Shown: positions 31,063-35,918 of the stretch, in pieces
How the letters are laid out: every line of letters starts with the position of its first letter
Position numbering within the stretch: position 1 is the first letter of the stretch
Assembly: GCA_028687995.1 (NCBI GenBank)
Contig: JAQTZA010000001.1
Coordinates: 310,001 to 374,000, forward strand
Reading direction: 5' to 3'
DNA: 64,000 nt
Origin: Bacteroidales bacterium
GTDB taxonomy: Bacteria > Bacteroidota > Bacteroidia > Bacteroidales > UBA7332
Program-made: the position numbers and the translations under genes
Notes under the pieces: generated by a model
Seen by the model: only the letters and a program-made list of their open reading frames with translations
Told to the model about the DNA's origin: nothing
Databases searched by the model: none

Positions 31063-31129
31063 CTCTATATTTTATTTATTTTTTGGATGTGCTGCATCCC
31101 TAGTTTGGCGTAGCCTACTAAGGTTTGGC

Positions 31130-31145
31130 GTAGCGTCCTCGCTAC
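31130..31145. repeat. Hairpin GTAGCG-TCCT-CGCTAC
   Basis: Perfect 6-bp stem, TCCT loop. Confidence 0.9.
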
Positions 31146-31158
31146 GTCATTGCTAAAA

Positions 31159-31176
31159 GCAAGCGTCCTCGCTTGC
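31159..31176. repeat. Hairpin GCAAGCG-TCCT-CGCTTGC
   Basis: Perfect 7-bp stem, TCCT loop. Confidence 0.9.
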
Positions 31177-31186
31177 AAATTCAAAG

Positions 31187-31771
31187 CTAACGAATAGTTC
31201 GCATCAATCCAATTTTCTCAATCGAGCGCAAGGCAGGTATAATTTCCAACAAACACTCTTTTCCAGCATAAGCTCTTGCGCTCGAATAGAGATAATCTTC
31301 GGCAGATTCCACAATGCCTGCTCGAACAGGATTTTCGTGGATATAGTTAATCTTTTGATCGATAAACTGATTGCTATAAATAATCTCGGGATGATTTTCG
31401 TGCGTCCAGAACTGATATTTCTCGCATCGTTTGTGTCGTTTAGCTGCGAATTCAAAGATATTCAACATCCAATCTCTTCTACTTTCAGGTTCGTCCTTTA
31501 TCGCCTTCAATATTTCATTTGCCGTGAAACTCTTAAACTCACGTACAACGTCACTCAAATCCCGCGTTTCGCTTCTCGCTAACAGATGAATATGATTACT
31601 CATCACCACAAATGCGAAAATCTCCAACCCTTTATTCTTCTGGCAATAGCGCAGACTGCTTATCACAATATCCCGATAAATCTGTCGTGTAAAGATATCC
31701 ACCCATTCCACCACCTGAAAAGTCAGATAATGTAGTTCGTTCTGCTCTTTTATTTGACATCCGCTACTCAT
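31187..31771 (-). CDS. REP-associated tyrosine transposase (Y1_Tnp)
   Basis: HUH motif NHIHLL; catalytic Tyr region FIDQKINYIHENPVRAG. Confidence 0.9.
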   Translation of the reverse strand: MSSGCQIKEQNELHYLTFQVVEWVDIFTRQIYRDIVISSLRYCQKNKGLEIFAFVVMSNHIHLLARSETRDLSDVVREFKSFTANEILKAIKDEPESRRDWMLNIFEFAAKRHKRCEKYQFWTHENHPEIIYSNQFIDQKINYIHENPVRAGIVESAEDYLYSSARAYAGKECLLEIIPALRSIEKIGLMRTIR

Positions 31772-31938
31772 ATCTTAGGCTTTATATACCAACAATCACA
31801 AAGATAACGATTCTTATCTTTTATGCAAAAACGGCTTCAATCTTGTGGACTGAACCCGCGTTACTTTTCTCGCTTTGACCGTAGCCTCTACCTCAGCCAG
31901 CCCTTCGGCGTATGGCTCTGCCTACGTCGTTTTTATTT

Positions 31939-31954
31939 AAAAGCTCCTGCTTTT
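31939..31954. repeat. Hairpin AAAAGC-TCCT-GCTTTT (head-to-head with next)
   Basis: Perfect 6-bp stem, TCCT loop. Confidence 0.75.
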
Positions 31955-31966
31955 CTTTATATATGT

Positions 31967-31984
31967 GCAAAGCAGGAGCTTTGC
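31967..31984. repeat. Hairpin GCAAAGC-AGGA-GCTTTGC
   Basis: Perfect 7-bp stem, AGGA loop (reverse complement of TCCT). Confidence 0.9.
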
Positions 31985-31997
31985 TTTTAGAAATGAC

Positions 31998-32013
31998 GTA
32001 GCGAGAACGCTAC
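31998..32013. repeat. Hairpin GTAGCG-AGAA-CGCTAC
   Basis: Perfect 6-bp stem, AGAA loop. Confidence 0.85.
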
Positions 32014-32112
32014 GCCAAACTGCGCTACGGTTTTGGCACGCTACGACCAACAAGGGGGGGACGCTACGCCAAACCGCGCTACGGTTTATTGCACGCTACG
32101 ACCGACTGGGGG

Positions 32113-32868
32113 TTATTCTGAAACAACTTGAATAACATTAGAGGTAATTCTTCCCTTAAACCGATGATAACCTAGTTGGTCTAGAAACTTGGTTTCTTCT
32201 TTGAAGAGTTTATTGTTAGTTTTGTAATCAATGAGAAGTTGATATGTTGCCCTTCTCAATAATAGATAATCCAAGTTAAAGTAAAAAATCTTCTTTTCGT
32301 TTGGTGCTAAGATAACAGTATGTTTAATGAAAAAGTCATTTTCTGGATCAATTAATACATGCTCTTTCTTAATTAGTCGATATAAATTCACATCAAAATA
32401 TCTACTTGAATCTGAATCAGTATTACTTAATTTGTAATATCCTCCTAATCTCATTAAATGTTCCACAACTTCAAAAATATCTATTTTTTCTCCTGTGTGA
32501 TTTAATTGATACCGTTTTTTTATATCTGGGAGTGTAAGTCTTATATGATCTCTTACATCTCCCTTTTTAATAAAAGAATGATTTTTTTTGTTAGTATCAT
32601 CAGAGTCGCAACAATTTGCATATTGAGCCTGAATTGGAAGCCAATCATCAAACCCAATTTCATCAATTTTACAAACCAAATACAATTTCTTTGCAGTCTC
32701 ATTTTTTAAAGAGAGGATCGCTAATAAACTATCTTTATCCTGATAAGTTAGTTGCAGATTAGCACTTATTTCTTGCCCTGTTATGCTATTTTCAATGAAA
32801 ATCAGATTGAGAAATAGGAAGGTGATTATTCTAAAATTAAACATAATAAATATATTAAAATTTAGCAT
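32113..32868 (-). CDS. Hypothetical exported protein
   Basis: Hydrophobic signal-like N-terminus (FRIITFLFLNLIFIENSITGQE); stop codon abuts RAYT element 1. Confidence 0.55.
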   Translation of the reverse strand: MLNFNIFIMFNFRIITFLFLNLIFIENSITGQEISANLQLTYQDKDSLLAILSLKNETAKKLYLVCKIDEIGFDDWLPIQAQYANCCDSDDTNKKNHSFIKKGDVRDHIRLTLPDIKKRYQLNHTGEKIDIFEVVEHLMRLGGYYKLSNTDSDSSRYFDVNLYRLIKKEHVLIDPENDFFIKHTVILAPNEKKIFYFNLDYLLLRRATYQLLIDYKTNNKLFKEETKFLDQLGYHRFKGRITSNVIQVVSE

Positions 32869-32935
32869 TTAAAAGCCATTTATATTTGTTCCAATTCCAA
32901 TCTCCTGTCGCGCCGGATATACCGCACTATGTTGT

Positions 32936-33163
32936 TGTACATTAGCGAGATTTAGCTCCGCTGATTGCTAATTGCAATCTCGCTTTTTAGTATTATTAGG
33001 ATCTTTGATCCGACAACTACTTCGGTGCGATACATTACGTCTGCAATATTACTGATTTGTTGGGAATTATTTTTCTTTTTGCATTGCAAATGCCCATAAT
33101 AACCAAGGGGCGGATCACAGATCACGCCCCGACGGTTCATTATTTTTCTACGGCTTCATATCT
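32936..33163. repeat. Intergenic repeat copy B
   Basis: TGTACATTAGCGAGATT..AATCTCGCTTTTTAGTATTATTAGGA ... GGGGCGGATCACAGATCACGCCCC ... TTTCTACGGCTTCATATC; parallels copy A. Confidence 0.65.
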
Positions 33164-33260
33164 GGGGGACGAGGGCATTTCTACCCACCACTCTTCGATA
33201 TTGTTTGCTAATTATTATAGGTATTCAACTATTTGAATTGGTATCACCAAATCTAACACA

Positions 33261-33548
33261 TTACCACACATTACCATATTTCTTCTTCACTTCAAATTTC
33301 GATAAATTTCTCAACATTGGAGGTCCACCTCCTTGCATTTCACTTTCTGTATAAATTAATTCCCAATATCTTTTATCTGCTGGGTCTTGATATAACTTTT
33401 CCCAACCACTCTCATCAACTGCAATCTCAGTCAAATATTCTGAGATAAGATTCTCAATTCTTTTACAAACATTATCAGCGTCTATTGTAGATCCATTAAA
33501 TATCCAATTGCCACGCAATTCAAATTCTTCTTCTTTAATTTGTCCCAT
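33261..33548 (-). CDS. Imm27-like immunity protein
   Basis: GNWIFNGSTIDADNVCKRIENLISEYL ... SGWEKLYQDPADKRYWELIYTESEMQGGGPPMLRNLS, matching my recollection of Imm27 family. Confidence 0.7.
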   Translation of the reverse strand: MGQIKEEEFELRGNWIFNGSTIDADNVCKRIENLISEYLTEIAVDESGWEKLYQDPADKRYWELIYTESEMQGGGPPMLRNLSKFEVKKKYGNVW

Positions 33549-33549
33549 T

Positions 33550-33960
33550 TTATTCTACGATTATAGTTGTTGCTCCTGTTGGTGTTTCTTGATTAGGTAT
33601 TGTAAACTCCTTAGCCCCACCAGCTGTTCTTCCATTGCCTACAAAACCTGGATTAGAACGATTTATTGGAGTGCTTATACCTGTACTAGGTGTATCAAAC
33701 TCTGTTATCCTAAATCCACTACTACTTTGTGGAATGGTTAATTTTTCTGAGAGTTGAGTTGCATTAAGACCAGCAATATCAGCAGGATCCGTTACAAAAA
33801 CATCAGGAGCATTAGGAGCCCCTAGCGTTTTACTCTCAACATTAGCAGGTACTACTCTTGCTAATCGGCTAGGAACGGGGTTTGAAATTATAGCCTTTTC
33901 AGTTGCGGCAGCACTTTTTGTCAATTTAGAAACACTTGAGATGTCTTTTGCAACTCCTTC
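33550..33960 (-). pseudogene. Orphan C-terminal tip of an Rhs/polymorphic toxin (type 10-like), 5' end truncated at RAYT element 2
   Basis: LGAPNAPDVFVTDPADIAGLNATQLSEKLTIPQSSSGFRITEFDTP..PINRSNPGFVGNGRTAGGAKEFTIPN; reading frame open up to element boundary; paired with immunity gene. Confidence 0.6.
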
Positions 33961-34008
33961 ACCCCTAGTTTGGCGTAGCCTACTGAAACCGTAGCGCAGT
34001 CGTTTGGC

Positions 34009-34024
34009 GTAGCGTCCTCGCTAC
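34009..34024. repeat. Hairpin GTAGCG-TCCT-CGCTAC
   Basis: Perfect 6-bp stem. Confidence 0.9.
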
Positions 34025-34037
34025 GTCATTGCTAAAA

Positions 34038-34055
34038 GCAAGCGTCCTCGCTTGC
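34038..34055. repeat. Hairpin GCAAGCG-TCCT-CGCTTGC
   Basis: Perfect 7-bp stem. Confidence 0.9.
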
Positions 34056-34065
34056 AAATTCAAAG

Positions 34066-34650
34066 CTAAGGAATAGTTCGCATCAATCCAATTTTCTCAA
34101 CAGACCGCAAGGCAGGTATAATTTCCAACAAACACTCCTTTCCGGCATAAGCTCTTGCGCTCGAATAGAGATAATCTTCGGCATATTCCACAATGCCCGC
34201 TCGGACAGGATTTTCGTGGATATAGTTAATCTTTTGATCGATAAACTGATTGCTATAAATAATCTCCGGATGATTTTCGTGTGTCCAGAATTGATGTTTC
34301 TCGCATCGTTTGTGTCGTTTAGCAGCGAATTCAAAGATATTCAACATCCAATCTCTTCTGCTTTCAGGCTCATCCTTTATCACCTTCAATATTTCGTTTG
34401 CCGTGAAACTCTTAAACTCACGTACAATATCACTCAAATCTCGCGTTTCGCTTCTCGATAACAGATGAATATGATTACTCATCACTACAAATGCGTAAAT
34501 CTCCAACCCTTTATTCTTTTGGCAATACTGCAAACTGTTTATCACAATATCCCGATAAATCTGTCGCGTAAAGATATCCACCCATTCCACCACCTGAAAA
34601 GTCAAGTAATGAAGTTCGTGTTGCTCTTTTATTTGACATCCGCTACTCAT
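34066..34650 (-). CDS. REP-associated tyrosine transposase (Y1_Tnp), second copy
   Basis: 194 aa, 11 substitutions relative to 31187-31771 product; NHIHLL and NYIHENPVRAG. Confidence 0.9.
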   Translation of the reverse strand: MSSGCQIKEQHELHYLTFQVVEWVDIFTRQIYRDIVINSLQYCQKNKGLEIYAFVVMSNHIHLLSRSETRDLSDIVREFKSFTANEILKVIKDEPESRRDWMLNIFEFAAKRHKRCEKHQFWTHENHPEIIYSNQFIDQKINYIHENPVRAGIVEYAEDYLYSSARAYAGKECLLEIIPALRSVEKIGLMRTIP

Positions 34651-34765
34651 ATCTTAGGCTTTATATACCAATGCTCACAAAGATAACGATTCTTATCTTT
34701 TATGCAAAAGCGGCTTCAATCTTGAGGACTGAAACCGCTTTACTCTTCTCGCTTCGCGATACGTT

Positions 34766-34783
34766 GCCAGCCCGGAGGCTGGC
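34766..34783. repeat. Hairpin GCCAGCC-CGGA-GGCTGGC
   Basis: Perfect 7-bp stem, different sequence from the left-end hairpin. Confidence 0.9.
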
Positions 34784-34794
34784 TTTTAGCACGA

Positions 34795-34812
34795 CATAGT
34801 CAGGAGACTATG
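34795..34812. repeat. Hairpin CATAGTC-AGGA-GACTATG
   Basis: Perfect 7-bp stem, different sequence from the left-end hairpin. Confidence 0.9.
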
Positions 34813-34859
34813 CCGAACGACCGCGCTACGGTTTTGGCACGCTACGACCAACAAGGGTA

Positions 34860-35918
34860 TTAAAGGTTTGTTCCCTTTTTGACTTCTTCTTGTTTCTTAT
34901 TCATTAAAGCTTTTGTGGAACTTTCAGTGGTTTTAGCTGCACCTTTAGCTACAGTTTTTACCACTCTTTTAACATTCTCTGTCACCTTTCTGGTTATATT
35001 GTTTCCTGTCGATTTAACCACAGTTTTCATTCCACTGGTTAATCTTCCTGCATTTGTAGTTCCAACTTTTGATAAAGGATTTCCAACAAGTTTCGAGGAT
35101 AACTTTCCAGCCGCTTTGTTTACGGTCAAATCAATAGCAGTGTTTTTTATAACATTGATAGGATTTGTTTGGAATTCTGTTTTCAAGCCTTCTTTTGATG
35201 TAGTTACTTTAACCGTATTGCTTATAGCAGTTGCTCCAACTTTAATTAAAGTTTTAGCAACAACACTTTCAACTGCGCTTGCTCCACTTGTTAATCCTCC
35301 GACAACAACTGCTGTTCCAATTGAAACAAGATTAATATTGTTTGTCCACGGGCTTTCTGAACCCGTGGCGTAATTAGCTGCCACTTGCTCTCCATAATCT
35401 ACTACTCCTCCAGCAAATGCCCCAAACGCATTATCAATTCCAAAAACTCTCCCGTCTGGGTCTGTATTTAGTACTGTATTATTTCCACACATTGAGTATG
35501 GACTCAAGTCATAGTCGTTCTCTACCTCTGGATCAGGAGTCTGAAACCTACCAATTGCCGGATAATACTGCCTCCAAACAATATCATACGTATCATACCC
35601 ATGCATCTCGATAAACTCCTTGCCGTTGTATTTTTTATTCTGCACCGAAGCTCCTGTGCCTTCTGTCCAAGGTAATCCCGAAGCATAATATTGTGTTTTT
35701 TGCACCGTGGTATTTGTATTCGCATACCAAACTTCGCGATTATCACCCGTGTGGTCTTTCCTGTAATAATAATACATGCTCACAGGACTGCTTGGATGCA
35801 GATAACCCTCGGCATTATACACTTTATCTAAGTCAATAAAGTTAGGATCTTGTGAATCACGGCTTCTGTCGTATTCAAAATTATCAACAAAAGCTGTTCC
35901 AGTGAGCGATCCTACCAA
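34860..35918 (-). pseudogene. 5'-truncated Rhs fragment: RHS repeat-associated core plus variable C-terminus
   Basis: YYYYRKDHTGDNREVWYANTNTTVQKTQYYASGLPW..YNGKEFIEMHGYDTYDIVWRQYYPAIGRFQTPDPEVENDYDLSPYSMCGNN..DPDGR; homology to 36454-39783 product continues upstream of the called Met to an in-frame stop. Confidence 0.75.

What the first reader, a model, noticed from the sequence alone, without database searches (positions are those of the whole stretch)
31098..34857. Two-hairpin module with conserved frame and co-varying stems, inverted at both ends of each RAYT gene
Written in one orientation, the four element ends are: GGC[GTAGCG]TCCT[CGCTAC]GTCATTGCTAAAA[GCAAGCG]TCCT[CGCTTGC] (left ends of both elements); GGC[GTAGCG]TTCT[CGCTAC]GTCATTTCTAAAA[GCAAAGC]TCCT[GCTTTGC] (right end of element 1); GGC[ATAGTC]TCCT[GACTAT]GTCGTGCTAAAA[GCCAGCC]TCCG[GGCTGGC] (right end of element 2). 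Loop, linker and spacing are held while both stems change with compensation. This suggests selection on a DNA or RNA structure (two stem-loops with a fixed TCCT loop and a TAAAA linker) rather than on stem sequence. Known REP/RAYT systems use hairpins, but this paired architecture with swapped stem sequences is, to my knowledge, not a standard described family.
Basis: partly seen in the sequence, partly recalled or inferred. Interest (0 to 1): 0.82.

Follow-up and report, generated by a model that had tools for sequence, protein, structure and literature searches.

The report
Double-hairpin REPs of Bacteroidota RAYT transposases
The two transposase-like genes here are bracketed by a paired-hairpin DNA signal whose shape and spacing are kept while its stem letters change; the same ruler-spaced signal flanks related genes across the Bacteroidota, so it defines the until now only vaguely described recognition element of this transposase group.

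Summary
Both RAYT genes (31187-31771 and 34066-34650, minus strand) carry, at each end and inverted, two tandem hairpins with compensated stem changes. They are not confined to the RAYTs. A covariance model finds at least 16 strong copies in this genome, several as REPIN-like inverted doublets.

In 141 Bacteroidota relatives I could define the element. It has a 5' foot G-Y-T, a 10-bp stem (H1) with a one-sided G·T wobble at pair 7 or 8, a purine at the third pair from the loop, and a 3-4-nt loop starting with T. A second T-first hairpin (H2) starts 24-27 nt after loop 1 in 67 of 134 cases (about 1 expected). It lies only on the inner side.

Variable stems beside a fixed foot are already the definition of REPs. 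These genes fit RAYT subclass 2.6 (Bertels group 5), whose flanks Quentin et al. 2018 called 'atypical secondary structures' without GTAG. So this is a new variant of a known kind: REPs with a new foot, GYT, and a ruler-spaced second hairpin. TCCT and TAAAA are local, not general. Most likely mechanism: the RAYT binds both T-loops of single-stranded DNA and reads the foot to place cleavage. No biochemistry was possible.

The parts
31098..32056 (-). Element 1: RAYT gene with inverted double-hairpin ends; an extra copy of the outer arm runs on to 32112
31123..31125 (+). GYT foot (GTT) of left module, element 1
31126..31149 (+). H1 of left module: 10-bp stem with G·T wobble, loop TCCT
31159..31176 (+). 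H2 of left module: 7-bp stem, loop TCCT; loop 26 nt after loop 1
31187..31771 (-). RAYT gene 1 (194 aa, HIH + Y143 + N147 intact)
   Evidence: Pfam Y1_Tnp; NF047646 REP_Tyr_transpos 99 bits, cut-off 80
31799..31828 (-). Bacteroidota-type promoter-like TTG-N19-TAnnTTTG between upstream module and RAYT 1 (consensus from general knowledge)
   Evidence: inference
31903..31954 (+). Extra inverted module facing the right module of element 1 (CTT foot, H1 with a bulged T, H2 AAAAGC[TCCT]GCTTTT): a REPIN-like doublet
31967..31984 (-). H2 of right module, element 1 (GCAAAGC[TCCT]GCTTTGC)
31994..32017 (-). H1 of right module, element 1 (loop TTCT)
32018..32020 (-). GTT foot of right module, element 1
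33962..34857 (-). Element 2: RAYT gene with inverted double-hairpin ends
34002..34004 (+). GTT foot of left module, element 2
34005..34028 (+). H1 of left module, element 2
34038..34055 (+). H2 of left module, element 2
34066..34650 (-). RAYT gene 2 (194 aa, 94-95% identical to RAYT 1)
34678..34707 (-). Promoter-like TTG-N19-TAnnTTTG of RAYT 2
   Evidence: inference
34766..34783 (-). H2 of right module, element 2 (GCCAGCC[TCCG]GGCTGGC)
34792..34815 (-). H1 of right module, element 2 (CGGCATAGTC[TCCT]GACTATGTCG)
34816..34818 (-). GTT foot of right module, element 2

Best explanation
The module is the REP (recognition element) of a Bacteroidota RAYT, and it differs in architecture from the GTAG-type REP. 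Shown here: foot GYT; a 10-bp H1 with a G·T wobble of fixed polarity; a T-first loop; a second T-first hairpin H2 at a fixed loop-to-loop distance on the inner side; modules inverted at the two ends of RAYT genes; free copies and inverted doublets in the genome; apical letters that follow the RAYT's own tree. Inferred: when the outside-to-inside strand is single-stranded (lagging-strand synthesis or a cruciform), both hairpins extrude. The HUH/tyrosine RAYT docks on the two T-loops and the apical pairs, probably as two protomers or a dimer, using wobble and foot for strand and orientation. It then cleaves near the foot and mobilises REP doublets. Stems drift because only their pairing, the apex and the wobble matter.
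For: Protein: REP_Tyr_transpos above cut-off; catalytic H60, H62, Y143 invariant in 17 aligned proteins; AlphaFold model best matches PDB 4er8, E. coli RAYT bound to a REP hairpin (E 9e-8). Element: 124 of 276 RAYT flanks have a GYT-tagged T-loop hairpin in outside-to-inside polarity, 36 in the opposite one, 0.8 in shuffles. GCT is found at 77 ends and GTT at 49; the median of all 64 trinucleotides is 1. Ruler: H2 loop at 24-27 nt for 67 of 134 H1s, 14 T-first loops over 54 other positions, no non-T loops there, no such peak on the outer side. Wobble G·T at pair 7 (37) or 8 (20), 5' G in nearly all; purine at pair 3 in 108/108. Density of tagged hairpins is 12.7 times higher within 350 nt of the gene than beyond 450 nt; E. 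coli rayT flanks have none. Covariation. Own genome: 16 copies at E <= 3e-13, several inverted doublets. A model from 11 distant modules rings in 14 of 59 genomes; 12 of these have a RAYT. Apex follows the RAYT tree. The signal has the same polarity at both gene ends, so it is sense on one side and antisense on the other, as a DNA signal would be.
Against: No binding or cleavage assay; no empty site or mobility event observed. Over half of the RAYT flanks lack the tag by my criteria, and half of the tagged H1s lack an H2. H1-H2 apex agreement (31 of 56 identical triplets against 7.6 permuted) cannot be separated from shared ancestry: only 2-4 independent pairs in the tests shown. In the window's own genome apices vary among copies, so a strict apex code does not hold there. 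Three rumen relatives (L026-L028) keep the RAYT beside the same upstream reading frame, which suggests vertical inheritance rather than active movement.
Confidence: 0.72

Rival explanations
1. Plain RAYT/REP system: only H1 is the REP and H2 is a neutral leftover of tandem REP duplication, so nothing beyond known REPs.
For: REPs occur in clusters near RAYTs (PMC3733652, PMC6006769). H2 lacks a GYT foot, and half of the tagged H1s show no H2.
Against: A leftover should not sit at 24-27 nt in 67 of 134 H1s with about 0.3 per position elsewhere, always T-first and only on the inner side. H2 stems are also kept by compensated change.
Confidence: 0.15
2. The hairpins act as RNA (terminators, mRNA stabilisers, or 5'-UTR control of the RAYT) and covary for that reason.
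For: REPs elsewhere affect mRNA stability and termination (PMC6006769); G-U pairs are tolerated in RNA.
Against: The polar features (foot, T loop, G·T side, ruler) have the same outside-to-inside orientation at both gene ends, so one end would always be antisense. The promoter-like site lies between the upstream module and the gene (inference). No Rfam family matches.
Confidence: 0.06
3. Compensated stems arise by mutation alone: template switching in small inverted repeats repairs one arm from the other, without selection for structure.
For: Quasi-palindrome correction is a known mutational process (general knowledge); in most pairs both arms change together.
Against: It does not explain the unpaired foot, loop T, ruler spacing, purine rule or the G·T wobble held in 17 of 19 own-genome copies while its outer neighbours switch.
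Confidence: 0.05

Closest known systems
TnpA-REP / RAYT subclass 2.6 = Bertels group 5 (Quentin et al. 2018, PMC6006769)
   Same: Phylum Bacteroidota; NHIH and YIHxNP motifs; HuH-to-Y distance about 81 here (82 reported); SS tail motif; flanking secondary structures with copies elsewhere in the genome; no GT[AG]G foot
   Different: The paper only calls the structures atypical and weaker. Foot, loop, wobble, second hairpin and spacing do not appear in the main-text passages I read; its supplementary table could not be read. Window genes have WT and YIHENP where the paper lists WQ and YIH[QN]NP.
GTAG-type REPs / BIMEs / REPINs with RAYT (E. coli, Pseudomonas, Stenotrophomonas; PMC3116915, PMC3686654, PMC3733652)
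   Same: Conserved 5' foot beside a hairpin of variable, compensated stem; inverted doublets; several genomic copies; flank the RAYT gene
   Different: Foot GYT instead of GTAG/GTGG; [quoted passage not shown] few copies per genome
IS200/IS605 ends (IS608, ISDra2)
   Same: HUH/Y1 enzyme; loop T and an irregular stem base contacted by the transposase (stated in PMC8266576)
   Different: Here the two ends are inverted copies of each other, the hairpin is doubled, and no TnpB gene is seen in the elements
TIRYT/TIRtrons (PMC3733652)
   Same: RAYT-like genes with inverted repeats at the ends
   Different: Reported TIRs are unrelated to hairpin REPs, mostly fit GGGG[AT][CG]A[CG], and mostly belong to subclass 2.1 (PMC6006769)

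Membership tests
RAYT / TnpA-REP (protein) | Curated family match and HUH + single tyrosine | tested here: met
   NF047646 99.1 and 94.8 bits, cut-off 80; H60, H62, Y143 invariant; best fold match 4er8
RAYT subclass 2.6 / group 5 | NH[LIV]H, WQ, YIH[QN]NP, HuH-Y distance about 82, SS tail, Bacteroidetes | tested here: inconclusive
   NHIH, SS tail, distance and phylum fit (median distance 81 among relatives), but the window proteins have WT and YIHENP. Assigned by motif, not with the authors' HMM; likely but not proven.
REP element | Conserved 5' foot next to a palindrome of variable composition | tested here: met
   GYT foot and compensated stems
REP element | Foot is GTAG or GTGG | tested here: not met
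   Foot is GCT or GTT at 10 nt from the loop; no other trinucleotide exceeds 17 ends. Hence filed as a variant, not as a GTAG-type REP.
REP element | Many dispersed copies, often as inverted doublets | tested here: met
   16 copies at E <= 3e-13 and inverted doublets in own genome; up to 34 model hits in another genome. Fewer than the >100 per genome usual for REPs (PMC2817692).
REP element | Single-stranded hairpin bound and cleaved by cognate RAYT | not testable with these tools
   needs purified protein
IS200/IS605 | Transposase over the IS200 family cut-off; end hairpins not inverted copies | tested here: not met
   NF033573 28 bits, cut-off 55; ends inverted

The most novel reading that the evidence does not exclude
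Bacteroidota RAYTs use a composite REP in which two tandem hairpins, held 24-27 nt apart loop to loop, are read together by two RAYT protomers (or a dimer) through their T-loops, with a GYT foot replacing GTAG. That would be a second, ruler-based recognition mode for domesticated single-strand transposases.
Probability: 0.5. Interest if true: 0.66.

Novelty: new variant of a known kind. Interest (0 to 1): 0.57.

Why it matters
REP/RAYT pairs are a rare case of a transposase that bacteria appear to have domesticated. How they recognise their targets has been worked out in three proteobacterial models (PMC8266576). The Bacteroidota branch was left with 'atypical structures'. A precise consensus (GYT, 10-bp wobble stem, purine, T-loop, ruler, second T-loop) lets these elements be annotated by covariance model and gives an immediate oligonucleotide test of whether hairpins are read in pairs.

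Tried and rejected
RNA family: no Rfam match at E <= 1. IS200/IS605 end model: rejected (inverted ends, low family score). Alignment A1 as proof of covariation: its rows were chosen by a hairpin scan, so its 99% pairing is partly circular; I rely on A3 and A7 and on features not used for selection. Even so, A3 rows include the right-hand ends taken from the elements themselves, and A7 rows come from a model built on A3. Alignment A2: I had padded one row by hand with a base; discarded and replaced by A4 and A5, which misplaced loop gaps, and finally by gap-free A6, used for model R2. Independent-pairs test of H1-H2 apex agreement: too few pairs to conclude. CCC run just outside the foot: 38 of 108 against 23 expected, too weak to call a border or target. 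phmmer against PDB: only weak matches, so a fold comparison was used. Bertels 2017 (gbe evx146) and all supplements were not available, so an earlier description of the double hairpin cannot be excluded.
Full report
What is there. Two RAYT genes (31187-31771 and 34066-34650, both minus; NF047646 above its cut-off) are each bracketed by inverted copies of a module made of two tandem hairpins. On the opposite strand the wobble becomes A·C and the fold weakens (-18.7 to -17.4 and -17.4 to -15.6 kcal/mol), so the outside-to-inside strand is the better-folding one.

Copies in the same genome. A blastn search with one end found eight places, among them a 0.3-kb derivative at C24 that keeps both ends and has lost most of the gene, and partial copies at C26, C3 and C1. 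A covariance model from nine ends (R1) then found 16 places at E <= 3e-13 and about 28 at E < 0.02. Several are pairs of modules facing each other at short distance (C11:116041/116104, C15:247814/247874, C3:460349/460417, C26:177302/177349, and window 31903-32020), that is, REPIN-like doublets. H1 and H2 types occur in many combinations (GTAGCG with CAAGCG, CAAAGC or CCAGCC; ATAGTC with CCAGCC or CAAAGC; GCGAAGGC with CAAAGC), so stems are indeed exchanged independently.

Covariation. On nine own-genome copies, most found by sequence similarity, 11 of 17 pairs show two-sided changes (3.5 in shuffles). On 19 copies it is 12 of 15 (8.3 in shuffles; 53 cells against 17). The G·T wobble is kept in 17 of 19 copies, while the two pairs outside it switch with compensation. 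A larger set from relatives gives 10 of 10, but those rows were selected as hairpins and I do not count it as independent.

The same thing in relatives. Searches of genome collections gave 141 RAYT genes whose flanks could be read. Tandem double hairpins are found at 71 of 276 flanks and in none of 828 dinucleotide shuffles. Scanning for any trinucleotide placed 10 nt before a T-first loop gave GCT at 77 ends and GTT at 49, then ACT 17 and GAT 16, with a median of 1. The GYT hairpin reads inward at 124 ends, outward at 36, and occurs 0.8 times in shuffles. It is 12.7 times denser next to the genes than further away, and absent at the E. coli rayT locus. Features not used in selection are sharp: the third pair from the loop has a 5' purine in 108 of 108, and non-Watson-Crick pairs concentrate at pairs 7 and 8, nearly all with G on the 5' side.

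The ruler. For 134 distinct tagged H1s I looked for any other hairpin at any distance from 12 to 69 nt. T-first hairpins occur at 24, 25, 26 and 27 nt after loop 1 in 3, 14, 27 and 23 cases. Over the other 54 distances there are 14 in all. None with another first loop base falls at 24-27, and the outer side shows no peak. This is the strongest result. It was not used in finding H1 and does not depend on stem sequence.

Link to the enzyme. The second base from the loop changes 15 times on the RAYT tree against 38 (minimum 33) for shuffled labels, and the apical triplet 37 against 57. H1 and H2 of one end share apices far above permutation (31 of 56 identical, 7.6 expected), but relatedness alone may explain that: the independent-pairs tests shown had 2-4 pairs. 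A generic model from 11 distant modules (R2) gives hits in 14 of 59 genomes of the order. Seven of these have a close RAYT and five a more distant one. In G014 and G015 none was found, though another genome of G015's genus has one. The predicted structure resembles PDB 4er8, RAYT with a REP hairpin, and catalytic H, H and Y are invariant.

Mechanism. Established for proteobacterial RAYTs (PMC8266576): only one strand of the REP is a substrate, an irregular stem or a loop base is needed, the foot is needed for or shapes cleavage, and parts of the stem can be changed. The present elements offer a counterpart for each of these cues: a foot (GYT), an irregular stem position (G·T), a loop base (T) and apical letters. 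They add a second hairpin at constant distance. I infer that the enzyme reads both loops together. Because the polar features have the same outside-to-inside direction at both gene ends, and a promoter-like TTG-N19-TAnnTTTG lies between module and gene (consensus from general knowledge), an RNA role is less likely.

Standing. Variable compensated stems with a conserved foot are the definition of REPs (PMC3686654), so that part is not new. Subclass 2.6 was reported with 'atypical secondary structures' lacking GT[AG]G (PMC6006769). [quoted passage not shown] I found no description of a GYT foot or of ruler-spaced double hairpins in the papers available; supplements and Bertels 2017 could not be read. 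Verdict: a new variant of a known kind.

Limits. No assay, no observed transposition, E-values from shortened calibration, one genome per species, relatives not independent, and no tag found at more than half of the RAYT flanks.

Noticed in passing
window 32915-32931; G000 C3:582438, C3:598967, C23:127674, C24:158295, C26:75667: Another repeat family (GGATATACCGCACWATG, followed in at least two copies by a T-rich hairpin) with six exact copies, several near RAYT elements or their remnants.
   Followed up: partly
window 33550-33924 and 34860-35918: Element 2 lies beside RHS/YD-repeat-related reading frames and may interrupt such a gene; flanks were not joined.
   Followed up: no
G000 C3:424414-424465 (L194:1505-1580): A second hairpin family in the same genome with TGC loops (CGCAAGTT[TGC]AACTTGTG, then TTGCAGTT[TGC]AACTGCAA and a third hairpin), found by the generic model; own genome also has more distant RAYT-like genes at C20:256762 and C15:193096.
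   Followed up: partly
L026, L027, L028: Three rumen species keep the RAYT at the same place beside the same upstream reading frame, suggesting vertical inheritance (domestication).
   Followed up: no
window 31098-31122, 32022-32112, 33962-34001, 34819-34857: Outside the foot the window family has a further conserved stretch (CCC..AGTT.GGCGTAGC and a small hairpin ACCG[TAGCG]CGGT); at element 1's right end part of it is duplicated in tandem.
   Followed up: partly
L043, L046, L049: Planctomycete/Brocadia RAYT-like genes are flanked by GGTTCAATC hairpins of a different type.
   Followed up: no
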